Shown one piece after another: positions 24,651 to 51,981 of a stretch of 64,000 nucleotides of DNA. Positions within the stretch are counted from its first letter, which is position 1, and every line of letters starts with the position of its first letter. The DNA is from Microbacterium terregens (lineage in GTDB: Bacteria; Pseudomonadota; Alphaproteobacteria; Sphingomonadales; Sphingomonadaceae), in the NCBI RefSeq assembly GCF_027922045.1, contig NZ_BSEX01000015.1:124001-188000 (forward strand), in the 5' to 3' direction. Made by a program: the position numbers and the translations under genes. A model generated the notes under the pieces. It saw only the letters and a program-made list of their open reading frames with translations, ran no database searches and had not been told where the DNA came from.

Positions 24651-26900
24651 ATGGTCAATGGCGCGAGGATGGAGAACAGGCGGAGCTTCACGCTCCCGAC
24701 GCGCTTCGTTCCAGCCATAGAGTTCGGCGTTCTGGCAATCGCCATCGCGGTGGGTGTCGGCAGCTACTTCGTGCTGTCCGGAGGAGAGCGGCAGCATCTG
24801 CTCACCCCTCCGGTGATGGCGCTGCTCCTCGTCTCCAACCTGCTGCCTTGCATGGCGCTGCTGGTGTTGTTGGGGCGTCGCGCGGCCAAGAAGCGCGCAG
24901 CGTCGATCGGGGGCGGCGGCGCGCTGCACGTGCGCCTCGTCGCGATGTTCTCGCTGCTGGCAAGCGTCCCCATGTTGCTGGTCACCATCTTCGCATCGCT
25001 GCTGTTCCAGACGGGCGTGGAGTTCTGGTTCTCCGACCAGGCGCGCAGCATGCTGGTCGATGCCCGCGCGCTGACGCAGGAAAGCTACCGGCAGATCCTC
25101 AGCTACGTTCGCAACGAAGTCGTGACCATGGCGGGTGACCTCGGCCCGGTCCTCCGGGAGTATCCGACGGACCAGCTGGAGGTGCAGCAATTCTTTGCGC
25201 AACAGGCCTATTACCGGAACCTGTCGGAAGCGGTCATCTTCTCCATCTCTCCCAAAGGAGAACTCCAGACACAGCTCTTCTACAACCCCACGGATCGCGA
25301 TCTCTCGACGGAGTTCGACATGAGCCGGGTCCGCGCGCTGTCGAACAGCGACGCCATCACGGACATCAAGAACGGTCGATCGCGGTCCGTCACTCGCATC
25401 CCCGGCGTCGACAACCTGTACCTGTACGGCGGGCGCGAGTGGGACATGACCAAATACCTGGCCTTGTCCGGTCGTGCGGAGACGATGCTGAAGAGTTACC
25501 AGGCATTTCTCGGCCGATCCGGCTCGATCCAGTTGCGGTTCAATATCTCGCTGTTTGTCATCTCACTGATGATCGTGGGGCTCGCGGTGTGGGTGGCGCT
25601 GGTCGTGGCGGATCGCCTCGTGCGTCCCGTGGGCGAATTGGTGCAAGCCGCAGACCGGGTCGCCGGGGGCGACCTGACCGCTCGGGTCGCCATTCCGCGG
25701 CGGATGGACGAGATCGGCACCCTCGCAACCGCCTTCAACCTGATGACCCAGCGGCTGAACGAGCAGACGAGCGCGTTGGTGAAGGCGAACGAACAGATCG
25801 ACAGCCGACGCGCCCTCATCGAGGCGGTGATGTCCGGCGTCAGCGCCGGCGTCATCTCGGTCGGGCCCGATCGCGCCATCCGTGTGATCAACGCCTCTGC
25901 TGCCAATCTGCTGGGCGTCGATGCGGCAGCGGCAGTCGGAAAACCGCTTGCTGCCGTGGCTGCCGAACTCGATGCGACGCTCGCAGGGGACGCCCGAGAG
26001 GCGATCGTCCAACTGCAGGCGCGGGGAGAGGCGAAGACGCTGGCCGTCAAGATCACGCGGGACGACGGCAGCTTCATCCTGACCTTCGACGACATCACCC
26101 AGCAGTTGCTGGACCAGCGGCGCGCCGCCTGGTCGGACGTGGCGCGCCGCATCGCGCATGAGATCAAGAACCCGCTCACCCCGATCCAGCTCGCCGCCGA
26201 GCGGCTCAAGCGGCGATATGGCCGGCAGATCGAGAATGACGACGGCACCTTCGCAAAGCTGACCGATACGATCGTGCGGCAGGTGGGCGATCTGCGTCGG
26301 ATGGTCGACGAGTTCTCGTCCTTTGCCCGCATGCCCAAGCCCGTCTTCCATGAAGAGTCGATGCTCGACATTGCGCGCCAGGCTGTGTTCCTGCACGAGG
26401 TTGCGCATCCCGACATCACCTTCACCCTCGTCGCGGAGGATGGCCTTCCGCCTGTCGTCTGCGACCGCCGCCAGTTCGGCCAGGCGCTCACCAACATCGT
26501 CAAGAATGCTGTCGAAGCAGTTGAGGGGCGGCCAGAAAATGCGCCCAAGGGAGAAATTTGCGTCAGCCTCCAGGAAATCGGCGCTGGTCAGCTACAGCTG
26601 ACGGTTAGCGACAACGGGATCGGCCTTCCGGTGGAGCGGGATCGGATCGTCGAGCCGTACATGACCACGCGTGCACGGGGCACCGGCCTTGGCCTCGCCA
26701 TCGTCAAGAAGATCGTCGAGGAGCATTTTGGCAACATCAGCTTCGGCGATCGGCCCGGGGGCGGCACGGTCGTCACCATTACACTCGACCTGAACGTCCT
26801 TGCAGCACTGGAGGGAGAGGGGGCAGCTTCCGGCTACACCGGCCCCGAAGAATCTCAACGCCAGGCAATGCTTACCCGTAACGGAACACTCCGCTCATGA
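24651..26900 (+). CDS. ntrY: Membrane sensor histidine kinase NtrY
   Basis: 749 residues. N-terminal transmembrane segments near residues 20-40, 48-68 and 90-115 precede a periplasmic sensor region of about 180 residues. A further segment (LFVISLMIVGLAVWVALVVA) is followed by HAMP (RLVRPVGELVQAADRVAGGDLTARV), PAS (VMSGVSAGVISVGPDRAIRVIN), HisKA with H503 in [20 protein letters not shown], and HATPase (NIVKNAVEAVEG, VSDNGIGLP, GTGLGLAIVKK). Start ATG 24651; ATG 24669 is possible. Coupled to ntrX by ATGA. The NtrYX family responds to nitrogen, redox or envelope signals. Confidence 0.93.
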   Translation: MVNGARMENRRSFTLPTRFVPAIEFGVLAIAIAVGVGSYFVLSGGERQHLLTPPVMALLLVSNLLPCMALLVLLGRRAAKKRAASIGGGGALHVRLVAMFSLLASVPMLLVTIFASLLFQTGVEFWFSDQARSMLVDARALTQESYRQILSYVRNEVVTMAGDLGPVLREYPTDQLEVQQFFAQQAYYRNLSEAVIFSISPKGELQTQLFYNPTDRDLSTEFDMSRVRALSNSDAITDIKNGRSRSVTRIPGVDNLYLYGGREWDMTKYLALSGRAETMLKSYQAFLGRSGSIQLRFNISLFVISLMIVGLAVWVALVVADRLVRPVGELVQAADRVAGGDLTARVAIPRRMDEIGTLATAFNLMTQRLNEQTSALVKANEQIDSRRALIEAVMSGVSAGVISVGPDRAIRVINASAANLLGVDAAAAVGKPLAAVAAELDATLAGDAREAIVQLQARGEAKTLAVKITRDDGSFILTFDDITQQLLDQRRAAWSDVARRIAHEIKNPLTPIQLAAERLKRRYGRQIENDDGTFAKLTDTIVRQVGDLRRMVDEFSSFARMPKPVFHEESMLDIARQAVFLHEVAHPDITFTLVAEDGLPPVVCDRRQFGQALTNIVKNAVEAVEGRPENAPKGEICVSLQEIGAGQLQLTVSDNGIGLPVERDRIVEPYMTTRARGTGLGLAIVKKIVEEHFGNISFGDRPGGGTVVTITLDLNVLAALEGEGAASGYTGPEESQRQAMLTRNGTLRS

Positions 26901-28279
26901 AGCTCGATATCCTTGTCGTCGATGACGAAACCGACATCCGCGATCTCGTCTCCGGTGTGCTGGAAGACGAGGGCTATGAAACGCGGGGTGCTGCCGACAG
27001 CGATGCAGCGCTGGAGGCGATTGCCGCAAGGCGTCCGTCACTGGTGCTGCTCGACGTATGGCTGCAGGGTTCGCGACTGGATGGGCTCGAACTGCTCGAC
27101 GTCATCAAAGAGCGGGACCCGACGCTTCCCGTGCTGGTGATCTCCGGTCACGGCAACATCGACACTGCGGTGGCGGCGATCCGTCGCGGTGCGGTCGACT
27201 TCATCGAGAAGCCGTTCGAGGCAGAGCGCCTGCTGTTCCTGGTAGAACGCGCGACCGAAACCGAGCGGCTGCGCCGCGAGGTCGCCTCGCTCCGCGCATC
27301 GGCAGGTCGTGAGGACGACCTGACCGGCAGTTCGGCGGCGATCAATACCGTACGGGCGACGCTCAAGCGCGTGGCCTCCACCGGCAGCCGCGTGCTCATC
27401 ACCGGCGGCCCCGGCATCGGCAAGGAAGTCGCGGCCCGCCTGCTTCATGGCTGGAGCCAGCGCGCCGCTGCGCCCTTTGTGATCGTGAGCGCGGCGCGGA
27501 TGACGCCCGAGCGCGTGGAAGAAGAGTTGTTCGGGGTGGAGGAGGGGGGCGAGCTCGTTCGCCCGGGCCTGCTCGAACAGGCGCATGGCGGCACCCTGTT
27601 CCTGGACGAGATCGCGGACATGCCGATCACGACCCAGGCCCGCATCCTGCGGGTGCTGACCGATCAGAGCTTCACACGCGTCGGGGGCCAGCGCGTCGTC
27701 AAGGTGGACGTGCGGGTCGTCTCCGCTACCGCGCGGAACCTGCAGGACGAGATCGCGGAGGGCCGTTTCCGCGAAGACCTCTACTACCGCCTCAACGTCG
27801 TTCCGGTGGTGATCCCGGCGCTTACCGAGCGCCGCGAGGACATACCGGCGCTGGTGGAGCATTTCGTCGCGCATTACGCCTCCGAGCGGCGGGTGCCGAC
27901 ACCGGAGATCGCTCCCGATGCGATGGTGGCGCTGCAATCCTATGAGTGGCCGGGCAACGTCCGCCAGTTGCGCAATGTCGTCGAGCGCACCGTGATCCTT
28001 GCGCCTGGCAACCGCATCGGCCGGATCGACGTGGACCTGCTTCCTCCGGAAGTGCTCGGTACGCCCGGCGAGGGGAGCGGCGGATTGGGTGCCAATGCCA
28101 TCATGGGGGCGCCACTCCGCGAGGCCCGGGAGTCGTTCGAGCGGGAATATCTGCGGGTGCAGATCCGGCGTTTCTCAGGGAACATCTCGCGCACTGCGAG
28201 CTTCATCGGCATGGAGCGTTCCGCGCTTCACCGGAAACTGAAGTTGCTTGGGATCACCGAAACCCGCGGCGACGAGTAG
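26897..28279 (+). CDS. ntrX: Response regulator NtrX, lacking the GAFTGA motif
   Basis: 460 residues; partner of NtrY. The receiver domain (VVDDETDIRDLV) has D53 in LLDVWLQGS, and its DVWL signature is typical of NtrX. The AAA+ domain keeps a P-loop (GGPGIGKE) and Walker B (GTLFLDEIADMP), but the L1 loop reads LFGVEEGGELVRPG where NtrC has GAFTGA. A Fis-type HTH closes the protein (ISRTASFIGMERSALHRKL). Without GAFTGA it is unlikely to remodel sigma-54 holoenzyme; DNA binding with another sigma factor is the likelier mode. Identity is secure from order and context. Confidence 0.93.
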   Translation: MKLDILVVDDETDIRDLVSGVLEDEGYETRGAADSDAALEAIAARRPSLVLLDVWLQGSRLDGLELLDVIKERDPTLPVLVISGHGNIDTAVAAIRRGAVDFIEKPFEAERLLFLVERATETERLRREVASLRASAGREDDLTGSSAAINTVRATLKRVASTGSRVLITGGPGIGKEVAARLLHGWSQRAAAPFVIVSAARMTPERVEEELFGVEEGGELVRPGLLEQAHGGTLFLDEIADMPITTQARILRVLTDQSFTRVGGQRVVKVDVRVVSATARNLQDEIAEGRFREDLYYRLNVVPVVIPALTERREDIPALVEHFVAHYASERRVPTPEIAPDAMVALQSYEWPGNVRQLRNVVERTVILAPGNRIGRIDVDLLPPEVLGTPGEGSGGLGANAIMGAPLREARESFEREYLRVQIRRFSGNISRTASFIGMERSALHRKLKLLGITETRGDE

Positions 28280-28376: not shown

Positions 28377-28868
28377 ATGGCCGAGAAGCAGAGCTCGCTC
28401 CAGGATCTCTTCCTCAACGCGCTTCGGCGTTCCAAGACACCAGTAACGATGTTCCTCGTGAAGGGCGTGAAGCTGCAGGGCATCGTCACGTGGTTCGATA
28501 ATTTTTCGGTGCTGCTGCGGCGCGACGGACAGTCGCAGCTGATCTACAAGCACGCCATTTCCACCATCATGCCCGCAGGGCAGGTCGATCTTGACCCGAT
28601 CGTGGCTGCCGCGGCGGAGCAAAGCTCGCGCAATGCGCTGCTTCAGGAAATTTTCCTGAACGCGGTTCGGAAGAACCACGAGAGCGTCACCATGTTCCTG
28701 GTCAACGGCGTGATGCTGCAGGGGCAGATCGCCGCTTTCGACCTCTTCTGCATGCTGCTGCAGCGCGACGGTGTTTCGCAGCTGGTCTACAAGCATGCCG
28801 TGTCGACGATCCAGCCGGCGCATCCGCTCAACTTGGCCGAGGAACAGGCCGGATCGGACGCAGATTGA
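28377..28868 (+). CDS. hfq: RNA chaperone Hfq, tandem double-domain form
   Basis: Sm-like RNA chaperone for small-RNA regulation. Ordinary Hfq is 70-100 residues with one domain; this is 163 residues with two full Hfq domains. Domain 1 (about 8-66) has [24 protein letters not shown] and YKHAIST (57-59 YKH). Domain 2 (about 89-147) has [24 protein letters not shown] and YKHAVST (138-140). About 37 of 59 aligned positions are identical. Domain 2 has D to E at the Q-D position (E91) and R-K instead of R-R on the rim. An Ala-rich linker joins them. Upstream of hflX, as is usual for hfq. Confidence 0.95.
28398..28817 (+). repeat. In-frame tandem duplication of the Hfq domain within hfq
   Basis: Codons 8-66 (28398-28574) and 89-147 (28641-28817) encode homologous Hfq domains at a constant offset of 81 codons (243 bases), with no indels between aligned positions. 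The copies have diverged, so this is an old duplication and not an assembly artefact. Confidence 0.9.
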
Positions 28869-30151
28869 GCGGCGGGTTCGAACGCGACGTCGAGGAGTTT
28901 TCGCGCGGCGCGCGTGCGCTGATCGTGCTCCCGGACATGGGTGGATCGGCGCGCGATGCGGACGCTCGTCTCGCGGAAACGGCGGGGCTCGCGCTGGCGA
29001 TCGGGGTCGAAGTGCAGGAGCGCGTGGCGCTGCGCGTACGACAACCCCGCGCCGCCACGCTGATCGGCAGTGGGCAGGTCGACGCGCTCGCCGAGACGGT
29101 CCGCGACCAGGACCTGCAGCTCGCGGTATTTGATGCCGCGCTGACGCCGATCCAGCAGCGGAACCTGGAGAAGGGCCTTGGCTGCAAGGTCATCGATCGC
29201 ACCGGCCTGATCCTGGAGATCTTCGGCGAACGTGCGCGCACGGCCGAGGGACGCCTGCAGGTGGAGCTCGCCCACCTGGACTATCAGGCCGGCCGCCTGG
29301 TCCGCAGCTGGACCCACCTCGAGCGGCAGCGGGGCGGCTTCGGCTTCCTGGGCGGCCCTGGTGAGACGCAGATCGAGGCCGACCGCCGCTTGATCCGCGA
29401 CCGCATGGCGCGGCTGCGGCGCGAGCTCGAGAGCGTGTCGCGCACCCGCGGGCTGCACCGGGATCGCCGGCAACGGGCGCCTTGGCCGGTCGTCGCGCTG
29501 GTCGGCTATACCAACGCCGGCAAGTCTACGCTGTTCAACCGGCTGACCGGCGCGGAGGTGATGGCAGAGAACCTGCTGTTCGCGACGCTCGATCCCACGC
29601 TTCGGCAAATCTCGCTGCCGGGCGTGGACAAGGTGATCCTGTCGGACACAGTGGGCTTTGTCTCGGAGCTGCCGACCCAACTCGTTGCGGCGTTCAAGGC
29701 GACCCTGGAAGAGGTCGTTTCGGCCGACCTGCTCGTCCATGTCCGCGACATCGCGCACCCGGACACCCAGGCTCAGGCGGACGATGTCGAGGCGGTGCTC
29801 TCCGAGATCGGCGTGGACGAAACCACGCCCAGGATCGAAGCCTGGAACAAGCTGGACCTTCTGGAGCCCGACGACCGCACGGAGCTTGAAGGCGAGGCGT
29901 CGCGCCGCGACGATGTCGTCGCAATCTCAGCGCTGACCGGGGAGGGGGTGGACGCGCTCCTTCGCACCATCGCCGATCGCCTGACCCAAGGACATCGGCG
30001 CTATCGCATCGCCCTCGCCCCGGAAGACGGCGCCAGCGCGGCGTGGCTGCACGCCCATGGCGAGGTCATCGACCATTGGATGGAGGGTTCGAGCGCCTTG
30101 TACGATGTCCGCATGGCTCCAGCGGACTATGAGCGGTTCCTCACACGCTGA
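28865..30151 (+). CDS. hflX: GTPase HflX
   Basis: Ribosome-associated GTPase involved in splitting stalled or heat-damaged 70S ribosomes. 428 residues from TTG 28865, which overlaps the hfq stop (TTGA). The N-terminal HflX domain is visible ([74 protein letters not shown]). The G domain has G1 [10 protein letters not shown]3 [13 protein letters not shown] and G4 NKLD. A gene-end inverted repeat may terminate transcription. Confidence 0.96.
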
Positions 30152-39128: not shown

Positions 39129-39218
<90 letters not shown>

Positions 39219-50861: not shown

Positions 50862-51981
50862 GAGCTTTGCAGCACATCGCGCCGATCTGGCGCAGCTGGC
50901 GGACCAGCATCGTATCCGCCGGCTCCTGCCCCGTCAGGGCACCGACTTCGCCTCCAACGATTATCTCGCGCTCGCTTCCGCGCCTCGCCTGCGGAATGCT
51001 GTCGCGGCCGCGCTCGCCGAGGGCGTAGCGGTCGGTTCGGGTGGGTCGCGGCTCCTTCGCGGCAACTCCGACGAGCACGAAGCGCTGGAGGCCGAGGCGG
51101 CCGCCTTCTTCGGCAGCGAGGCTTCCCTCTACTTTGCGAGCGGCTTTGCCGCCAACGCGGCGCTCTTCGCGACGCTCCCTCAACGCGGCGACCTGGTGGT
51201 CTATGATGCGCTGGTACACGCGAGCGCGCATGAAGGGATGCGGCTCGGCCGCGCCACCTGCGTCGCGGCCGAACACAACCAGGTCGATGCCTTCGAGGCG
51301 GCCATCCGCCAGTGGCGCAAGGGCGGCGGGACCGGGACGCCCTGGATCGCGGTGGAGAGCCTCTACAGCATGGACGGCGACCGGGCGCCGCTGGCGGCGC
51401 TCGCGAAGCTGGCTGACGCGCAGGATGCGATCCTGCTGATCGACGAGGCGCATGCGACCGGCGTCTTCGGCACTGCCGGGCGGGGTCTCGCCGAAGACCT
51501 GGAAGGTCGCGGCAACGTCGTGACCCTGCGCACCTGCGGGAAGGCGATAGGGTGCGAAGGCGCGCTCGTCTGCGGGCCGAGGATCGTACGCGACTTTCTG
51601 ATCAATCGCGGCCGCGGGTTCATTTTCTCCACCGCCCCCTCCCCGCTGATGGCGCGTGCCGTTCGGGAGAGTCTGCATATCCTCGCCGATGAGCCGAACC
51701 GACGCGAACGGCTGCACGACCTGGTTTGCCACGCGGAACGTGCACTTGCACCCGCAGGCGTCCAGCCGACCGGCTCGCAGATCCTCCCTCTGGTGATCGG
51801 GGACGATGCCGCGACCATGCGGGCAGCCGAAGCGTTGCAAGCCGATGGTTTCGACGTGCGCGGCATCCGCCCGCCTACGGTGCCGCGCGGCACTTCGCGC
51901 CTCCGCCTGTCCCTCACCCTCAATGTCACGACCGAGGATGTGGACCGGCTGGCCGCGCTGCTGCAGGAGGTCGTGCCATGA
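50857..51981 (+). CDS. bioF: 8-amino-7-oxononanoate synthase
   Basis: PLP enzyme joining pimeloyl-ACP or -CoA and alanine in biotin synthesis. 374 residues. Family marks are GTDFASNDYLALAS, GSGGSRLLRGNSDEHEALEAEAA, VESLYSMDGDRAPL, LLIDEAHATGVFGTAGRGL and the PLP lysine in TCGKAIGCEGALVCG. The only sensible start is ATG 50857, inside the 3' arm of a long hairpin. Overlaps bioD by four bases. Confidence 0.95.
   Translation: MPSFAAHRADLAQLADQHRIRRLLPRQGTDFASNDYLALASAPRLRNAVAAALAEGVAVGSGGSRLLRGNSDEHEALEAEAAAFFGSEASLYFASGFAANAALFATLPQRGDLVVYDALVHASAHEGMRLGRATCVAAEHNQVDAFEAAIRQWRKGGGTGTPWIAVESLYSMDGDRAPLAALAKLADAQDAILLIDEAHATGVFGTAGRGLAEDLEGRGNVVTLRTCGKAIGCEGALVCGPRIVRDFLINRGRGFIFSTAPSPLMARAVRESLHILADEPNRRERLHDLVCHAERALAPAGVQPTGSQILPLVIGDDAATMRAAEALQADGFDVRGIRPPTVPRGTSRLRLSLTLNVTTEDVDRLAALLQEVVP

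What the first reader, a model, noticed from the sequence alone, without database searches (positions are those of the whole stretch)
28377..28868. Hfq made of two fused Hfq domains, with the second diverged at RNA-binding positions
The gene encodes two full Hfq domains at a constant 81-residue offset (about 37 of 59 positions identical). Standard Hfq is a homohexamer of one domain per chain, so this form would have to assemble as a trimer of doubles or a two-layer structure. Both domains keep the YKH motif (57-59, 138-140), but the second has E at the Q-D position (E91), RK in place of RR on the rim, and M for K in the KLQG strand. The ring would then carry two kinds of RNA sites in alternation. 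I recall that double-Hfq frames were noted in Novosphingobium, so it may be a lineage trait; its biochemistry appears little explored.
Basis: partly seen in the sequence, partly recalled or inferred. Interest (0 to 1): 0.75.

Follow-up and report, generated by a model that had tools for sequence, protein, structure and literature searches.

The report
Two-domain Hfq with unequal halves
This bacterium makes its main RNA-handling protein, Hfq, as two fused copies that have drifted apart in a regular way, so the six-part ring is probably built from three unequal pairs; the fusion was already known, but the fixed differences between its halves look new and testable.

Summary
Window 28377-28868 (+) is one 163-aa frame with two complete Hfq domains, offset 81, 37 of 59 positions identical. 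The architecture is known: NCBIfam has a two-domain Hfq model that this protein passes, and a 2010 Zymomonas paper reports it, mentions six other Sphingomonadales species, and asks whether three chains make the ring (PMC2877685, passages). Added here: (1) the fusion appears to have arisen once inside one family; in a tree of the neighbouring gene hflX the 88 tandem rows form one clade and the 56 single-domain rows fall outside. (2) The halves differ in a fixed way over 96 tandem and 149 single-domain rows. Domain 1 gained a lysine at distal-face position 28 (96/96); domain 2 lost the lysine at 31 (94 Met, 2 Ala) and mostly the Asn at proximal position 41 (Leu 89/96); its rim patch is decayed in many genera; the acidic tail sits only on domain 2. 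(3) Domain 2 keeps its ring and pore residues and is under purifying selection. Most likely a ring of three chains with alternating unlike RNA sites; assembly is untested.

The parts
28377..28868 (+). hfq gene, two fused Hfq domains, 163 aa
28398..28574 (+). domain 1 (residues 8-66): full set of proximal, distal and rim residues, plus an extra lysine K29 (E. coli position 28) at 28461-28463
28575..28640 (+). linker (residues 67-88, 22 aa) between Pro66 of domain 1 and Leu89 of domain 2; the equivalent linker is 20-22 aa in 89 of 94 measurable tandem proteins (of 96); helix 73-80 in the model
28641..28817 (+). domain 2 (residues 89-147): ring and pore residues kept; M113 at distal position 31 (28713-28715), L123 at proximal position 41 (28743-28745), A120 at 38, Q146 at 63
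28818..28865 (+). C-terminal tail (residues 148-163), acidic end; the only acidic tail per chain
26897..28279 (+). ntrX, upstream neighbour; ntrX-hfq-hflX order seen in 92 of 96 tandem loci (of the other 4, ntrX not found in 3 and hflX in 1; loci are short)
28865..30151 (+). hflX GTPase, downstream neighbour; a TTG start would overlap the hfq stop codon

Best explanation
This is the cell's Hfq, made as a covalent dimer. A single in-frame tandem duplication of hfq, at the ntrX-hfq-hflX locus in an ancestor of the core sphingomonads, joined the C-terminus of one copy to the N-terminal helix of the next by a near-neutral linker that is now 20-22 residues in nearly all relatives (sequence shows the linker; the event is inferred from the tree). 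Three chains most likely close a six-domain ring in which domains 1 and 2 alternate (inferred). The two domains then split the work: domain 1 keeps the whole basic rim patch used for RNA annealing and holds two distal-face lysines (28 and 31); domain 2 keeps the proximal U-pocket residues Q8, F42, K56 and H57 and the ring-forming residues but has no distal lysine, has a leucine for the Asn/Gln at 41, has a rim patch that decays in many genera, and carries the only acidic tail. The ring would thus have threefold, not sixfold, symmetry of RNA sites, with three full rim patches matched to three acidic tails that can cover them (inferred from the Caulobacter structure, in which a tail docks on the neighbouring subunit's rim).
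For: Two Pfam Hfq domains and the two-domain NCBIfam model NF010691 at 286.9 bits, cut-off 270. One origin: hflX tree, tandem 88 rows one clade, 1 change, SH-aLRT 96 (quick method, no bootstrap); all domain-2 rows used form one clade, 100 (48 of 96 rows). In the family survey 388 of 397 genomes had an Hfq match: 339 with two matches (one of these, G028, has two separate single genes), 47 with one, 2 with more than two (counted by me from the rows; that the two matches are one frame was checked in 80 of 80 genomes). Outside the family, 77 of 83 genomes of the order had a match, all single but for one extra fragment in G014. In the class only the 5 family members drawn pass the two-domain cut-off (5 of 385; next best 147 bits). 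Fixed residue split in 96+96 domain rows against 149 single rows. Mean net charge at rim 16+17+19: single 3, domain 1 3, domain 2 0.47; at distal 28+31: 1, 2, 0 (93 tandem rows, genus g86 left out). Domain 2 is under purifying selection: mean dN/dS 0.113 against 0.035 for domain 1 (78 pairs of 13 same-genus genes). AlphaFold2 model: pLDDT 89.3, pTM 0.85, both domains with helix and five strands; best PDB matches are Hfq chains, Caulobacter 6gwk first. Residue roles: rim N13, R16, R17, F39 and proximal Q8, Q41, F42, K56, H57 (PMC4337610, passages); R16A and K31A lower the count of sRNA-mRNA chimeras in E. coli (PMC12262471, passages); the acidic tip of one Caulobacter subunit contacts the rim of the adjacent one (PMC6561178, passages).
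Against: No oligomeric state has been measured in what I read and none was computed: the model is one chain, and its coordinates could not be inspected, so 'neighbours in one ring' rests on pTM and on retained ring residues. The rim decay is a family trend, not universal: 41 of 96 domain-2 rows are still basic at position 17, and the window's own domain 2 keeps N13, R16, K17 and F39. Three rows of one genus (g86) have strongly diverged in both domains, so the split can be relaxed. Domain-1 rows do not form a clean clade in the short domain tree (2 changes). K31A alone is said to have had only mild effects on regulation in an earlier E. coli study (PMC12262471). The roles of positions 28, 38 and 63 are not established by anything I read.
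Confidence: 0.65

Rival explanations
1. Domain 2 is mainly a ring filler: it completes the hexamer but no longer binds RNA, and domain 1 does all the work.
For: Domain 2 departs from 12 of 38 positions that are nearly invariant in single-domain Hfq, domain 1 from 3; rim, distal 31 and proximal 41 positions are among them.
Against: Q8, K56 and H57 are kept in 96 of 96 domain-2 rows and F42 in 93 (Y in 3); those are pore RNA contacts in E. coli (PMC4337610, passages). dN/dS 0.113. Several replacements are themselves nearly fixed (M31 94, L41 89, Q63 94 of 96), which points to new use rather than drift.
Confidence: 0.2
2. Two-layer assembly: six chains, with a ring of domains 1 stacked on a ring of domains 2.
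For: A linker of about 20 residues could span two layers (inference). Both domains keep the ring-forming residues.
Against: The AlphaFold2 chain has pTM 0.85, which is hard to reach if the two domains have no fixed placement. The linker length is held to 20-22 residues in 89 of 94 measured. A ring of six domains 2 would carry an almost neutral rim on average.
Confidence: 0.12
3. Domain 2 was not duplicated in place but came from another lineage's hfq and was joined to the resident gene. (Compatible with the main reading of how it works.)
For: Domain 2 is almost equally far from single-domain Hfq of the same family (mean identity 0.652) and of other families of the order (0.647).
Against: Domain 2 shares Met at position 24 (92 of 96) with single-domain Hfq of its own family (36 of 37), where other families of the order have Val (32 of 33). 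The locus and order ntrX-hfq-hflX are the same in single-domain and tandem members of the family.
Confidence: 0.07
4. The fused frame is an assembly error or is cut into two proteins in the cell.
For: None found for an error; some relatives have a possible start codon in the linker.
Against: 80 of 80 relatives in 76 genera carry it without a stop. Zymomonas Hfq is listed at 161 aa and its GST fusion was expressed and recovered on glutathione columns (PMC4004385, passages); I did not see the gels.
Confidence: 0.01

Closest known systems
Zymomonas mobilis Hfq (ZMO0347; ZZ6_0899, 161 aa)
   Same: Two Sm-like domains in one chain; reported with six other Sphingomonadales species; the authors ask whether three chains would make the ring (PMC2877685, passages). 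The hfq mutant is less tolerant of pretreatment inhibitors (same paper).
   Different: Nothing in kind; the window's gene is another member. The passages I read give no domain-by-domain residue split, origin or assembly data.
NCBIfam NF010691 / PRK14091 (two-domain Hfq)
   Same: Matched over 16-175 of 176 at 286.9 bits, above its cut-off of 270.
   Different: The model's description is simply 'RNA chaperone Hfq'; it says nothing on unequal halves.
Caulobacter crescentus Hfq (PDB 6gwk)
   Same: Best-scoring solved chain for domain 1; short tail with an acidic tip; hexamer (PMC6561178, passages).
   Different: One domain per chain, six equal sites and six tails.
E. coli Hfq
   Same: Same fold; Q8, F42, Y55, K56, H57 kept in both domains of the window protein.
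   Different: One domain; N28 and K31 in every subunit; R16 R17 R19 rim; longer tail.
Eukaryotic Sm/LSm rings (recalled)
   Same: A ring of related but specialised Sm subunits.
   Different: Those are seven separate proteins; here one gene gives two subunit types by fusion. Recalled, not compared here.

Membership tests
Hfq (Pfam PF17209) | Hfq domain above the curated cut-off | tested here: met
   two stretches, 193.3 bits in total against a cut-off of 27
Hfq (Pfam PF17209) | N-terminal helix plus five-stranded Sm barrel | tested here: met
   both domains in the AlphaFold2 model; Hfq chains are the top PDB matches, but these cover mainly residues 4-75, domain 1
Hfq (Pfam PF17209) | Sm2 YKH motif | tested here: met
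   57-59 and 138-140
Hfq (Pfam PF17209) | one domain per chain | tested here: not met
   two domains in one frame; hence filed as the two-domain form, not as standard Hfq
Hfq (Pfam PF17209) | hexameric ring | not testable with these tools
   no multimer prediction or coordinates available; the chain alone has pTM 0.85
Two-domain Hfq (NCBIfam NF010691, sphingomonad type) | full-length match above the equivalog cut-off | tested here: met
   286.9 bits, cut-off 270, positions 16-175 of 176
Two-domain Hfq (NCBIfam NF010691, sphingomonad type) | hfq locus between ntrX and hflX | tested here: met
   neighbours named; same order in 92 of 96 tandem loci
Two-domain Hfq (NCBIfam NF010691, sphingomonad type) | K28/K31 in domain 1 and N28/M31 in domain 2 (a mark found here, not part of the published definition) | tested here: met
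   window residues K29, K32, N110, M113
Two-domain Hfq (NCBIfam NF010691, sphingomonad type) | RNA chaperone activity | not tested
   only genetics and expression work in Zymomonas, in papers of which I read passages

The most novel reading that the evidence does not exclude
Sphingomonads run all Hfq-dependent regulation on a naturally threefold-symmetric Hfq: alternating subunits, one with the annealing rim and a doubled distal lysine cluster, the other with the U-pocket and the acidic tail that covers its neighbour's rim. It would be a bacterial case of a homomeric Sm ring turned into an obligate hetero-ring by one gene fusion and then kept, as far as sampled, throughout the clade.
Probability: 0.5. 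Interest if true: 0.65.

Novelty: new member of a known kind. Interest (0 to 1): 0.48.

Why it matters
How many of Hfq's six equal sites are needed at each face is hard to ask, because every subunit is the same. Here evolution has marked the two halves of each pair separately, so changes can be made in three of six positions of one ring. The coordinated exchange (K28 in 96/96 domain-1 rows, M31 in 94/96 domain-2 rows, from 77 genera) gives a precise prediction. It also warns that E. coli rules for Hfq motifs may not carry over to sphingomonads, a large group of soil, water and pollutant-degrading bacteria that includes Zymomonas.

Tried and rejected
Tried and led nowhere: the window's own assembly is not held, so the survey is centred on the nearest held genome, G001. 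The paper that I recall as an early survey of Hfq (Sun and others 2002) is not held. A search for work on mixed or linked Hfq hexamers gave nothing on point by title (15 of 579 papers listed). Foldseek and VIA-align rows cover one domain at a time, so they say nothing on the placement of the two. The model's coordinates are not in the Python box. The domain tree has only 61 columns and cannot date the duplication.

Considered and rejected: E91 and RK as functional marks. Secondary loss of domain 2 as the origin of the family's single-domain genera: all 37 single-domain rows of the family keep N28, and those in the hflX tree lie outside the tandem clade. Gene conversion between the halves: the domain-2 rows used form one clade. 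Three-domain Hfq as a further step: five proteins of 241-248 aa, among the best 120 listed of 7998 scored, look so, but all are on contigs of 791-1621 bases and by eye their middle domains are chimeras of domains 1 and 2, so assembly loops are likely.

Weak points: the 149 single-domain rows hold at least four repeats of a genome (L051, L052, L061 and L067 match L021, L022, L236 and L241 by identical hflX or contig length), and one row (L244, a tandem fragment at a contig end) was left out. The 96 tandem rows include 13 of the window's own genus. For the hflX tree 5 loci were dropped for a short or missing hflX, 23 near-copies were thinned, and only 7 of the 80 loci L051-L130 were used; the tool warned of long branches (L060, L003, L066) and of open forks. 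Two genomes with one match in tandem genera (G013, G405) and the 9 genomes without a match were not looked into. Genera g84 and g96 show two matches but were not checked for one frame. The match lists are capped.

Full report
What is there. The frame at 28377-28868 (+) encodes 163 residues. Comparing it with itself, an offset of 81 gives 40 identities and the next best offset 19; residues 8-66 and 89-147 share 37 of 59 positions. Both halves are Hfq domains by Pfam (193.3 bits in total, two stretches). The whole protein passes NCBIfam NF010691, a two-domain Hfq model (286.9 bits, cut-off 270). Upstream lie ntrC and ntrX (both above NCBIfam cut-offs) with a sensor histidine kinase between them that passes no cut-off; downstream lies hflX (above the cut-off) ('ntrY' for the kinase would be my inference). 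This is the usual hfq locus: ntrX upstream and hflX downstream in 35 of 37 single-domain loci of the same family and in 70 of 80 loci counted as other alphaproteobacteria, one of which is in fact L244, a tandem fragment. In the 33 loci of other families of the order, hflX is downstream in all 33 but ntrX was found in only 1; those loci are about 3.2 kb, so ntrX may lie further off or elsewhere.

What is already known. The BMC Microbiology paper of 2010 on Zymomonas mobilis (PMC2877685, passages) says that ZMO0347 has two Sm-like domains, that six other species, also Sphingomonadales, share this, and that it should be tested whether only three proteins form the ring. A Burkholderia paper says in passing that Novosphingobium aromaticivorans has two hfq-like copies (PMC3474761, passages). 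Zymomonas Hfq of 161 aa has been expressed as a GST fusion and recovered on glutathione columns (PMC4004385, passages) and detected by FLAG blots (PMC5770649, passages). So the architecture and the trimer question are not new. I found no paper on the unequal halves; the searches were Hfq with Novosphingobium (13 papers), Zymomonas (20 of 68 listed), Sphingomonadales (6), phrases for tandem, double or fused Hfq (5), Sphingomonas or Sm domain (20 of 83 listed), a list of sphingomonad genera (15 of 302 listed) and Sphingomonadaceae (5). The library holds open-licence papers only.

Where the fusion occurs. In the nearest family, 388 of 397 genomes have an Hfq match: 339 show two, 47 one, 2 more than two, and 9 none (the split was counted by me from the rows). 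One of the 339 (G028) has two separate single-domain genes. Of the 47, one (G405) is a fragmented assembly in a tandem genus; the other 46 fall in 14 genera, which with G028's makes 15 single-domain genera. In a second search with the whole protein, 80 of 80 chosen genomes from 76 genera carried one unbroken tandem frame; with the window's own genus that is 77 genera. In a draw of 147 genomes from the order, 83 lie outside the family; 77 of these have a match, all single, but for one genome with a second short fragment on another contig. In a draw of 385 from the class, 319 match and 5 pass the two-domain cut-off, all in the family; the next best scores 147 bits. In an hflX tree of 144 rows the 88 tandem rows form one clade (SH-aLRT 96) and the 56 single-domain rows lie outside, so one change explains the whole pattern (quick method, no bootstrap). 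Since the single-domain relatives lie outside and keep N28, the simplest history is one gain and no loss among the sampled rows.

How the halves differ. I aligned 96 domain-1, 96 domain-2 and 149 single-domain rows and used E. coli numbers. Distal face: position 28 is K in 96/96 domain-1 rows, N in 96/96 domain-2 rows and N in 149/149 single rows. Position 31 is K (93) or R (3) in domain 1, M (94) or A (2) in domain 2, and K in 149/149 single rows. Thus the two basic residues per pair of subunits are kept in number but both sit on domain 1. Proximal face: position 41 is N in 93 domain-1 rows and 148 of 149 single rows, but L in 89 domain-2 rows; Q8, K56 and H57 are kept in 96/96 domain-2 rows. 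Rim: N13, R16 and F39 are unchanged in domain 1 (96/96 each). In domain 2, N13 remains in 19, R16 in 71, F39 in 42 (Y in 50), and position 17 is acidic in 45 and basic in 41. Positions 38 and 63, W and M in all 149 single rows, are A (82) and Q (94) in domain 2. Of 38 positions nearly invariant in single-domain Hfq, domain 1 departs at 3 and domain 2 at 12 (genus g86 left out).

Linker and tail. Between Pro64 of domain 1 and Leu7 of domain 2 (E. coli numbers) there are 20-22 residues in 89 of 94 rows that could be measured (of 96), near neutral on average; the end of the chain has three or more acidic residues in its last ten in 91 of 96 rows. So each chain has one acidic tail for two domains.

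Is domain 2 working? Yes, by selection: mean dN/dS in the window's genus is 0.113 for domain 2 and 0.035 for domain 1 (78 pairs). Domain 2 is also its own clade (100, 48 of 96 rows), while domain-1 rows need two changes in that short tree; so I see no sign that the halves are being evened out by gene conversion.

Structure. AlphaFold2 with a 95-row alignment of tandem proteins gives pLDDT 89.3 and pTM 0.85, helix and five strands in each half, and a helix at 73-80 in the linker. A pTM that high suggests that the model places the two halves confidently with respect to each other. That they are ring neighbours is my inference; the tools did not let me inspect the model's coordinates or fold three chains.

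How it most likely works. In E. coli, U-rich tails bind Q8, Q41, F42, K56 and H57 at the proximal face, and the rim uses N13, R16, R17 and F39 (PMC4337610, passages). R16A and K31A reduce sRNA-mRNA chimera counts, though K31A was earlier reported to be mild in regulation assays (PMC12262471, passages). In Caulobacter the acidic tip of one subunit lies on the basic rim of its neighbour (PMC6561178, passages), and in E. coli the tip competes with RNA for that rim (PMC5606850, passages). Put together with the residue split, an alternating ring would have three full rims on domains 1 and three tails on domains 2 next to them. The tail that domain 1 once had is now the linker, and the rim on domain 2, which that tail would have covered, has been free to decay. 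This last link is inference.

What speaks against. The window's own domain 2 keeps R16, K17, N13 and F39, so its rim is less changed than in many relatives. One genus (g86, L233-L235) has a strongly diverged tandem protein. I read of no assembly or RNA-binding data. A two-layer arrangement cannot be excluded by sequence. In 34 of 96 tandem genes an ATG lies in the linker, so a separate domain-2 product is not excluded there.

Verdict. A real, well-conserved, already described two-domain Hfq. What this adds is evidence for a single origin and a fixed, complementary split of RNA-binding residues, which turn a curiosity into a testable case of a ring that has lost its sixfold symmetry.

Noticed in passing
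P0001-P0005: Five proteins of 241-248 aa carry three Hfq domains, the middle one by eye a chimera of domains 1 and 2; all lie on contigs of 791-1621 bases. Assembly loops or unequal crossing-over.
   Followed up: partly
L233, L234, L235 (genus g86): A genus with strongly diverged tandem Hfq (42-48% identity to the window protein); L234 and L235 have YKQ for YKH in domain 1. Relaxed or altered Hfq function.
   Followed up: partly
L083: Sphingobium faniae carries the tandem form, a named example.
   Followed up: no
G028 (L241); L067: Two single-domain Hfq matches, at 50958 and 2859890 of one 2,880,809-base contig, the same length as the Hankyongella ginsenosidimutans record; a repeat or an overlapping end of the assembly.
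   Followed up: no
window 28865-28868: The hfq stop TGA overlaps a possible TTG start of hflX, which would allow coupled translation.
   Followed up: no
plasmid records: hfq-like genes on very large plasmid records of Azospirillum, Paracoccus, Shinella and Sinorhizobium, and a full-length match (81.6% identity) on an 880-kb Sphingomonas parapaucimobilis record.
   Followed up: no
P0066; L068: A record named Nostoc sp. 3335mG has a protein 84% identical to the tandem Hfq, and a Marinimicrobia bin has an alphaproteobacterial-type Hfq; probably contamination.
   Followed up: no
G014:C82:5520-5633: A second, short Hfq fragment (38 positions) on a separate contig of a single-domain genome.
   Followed up: no
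window 39129-39218: tRNA-Ser (TGA anticodon), the only RNA family match listed in the window at the gathering threshold.
   Followed up: no
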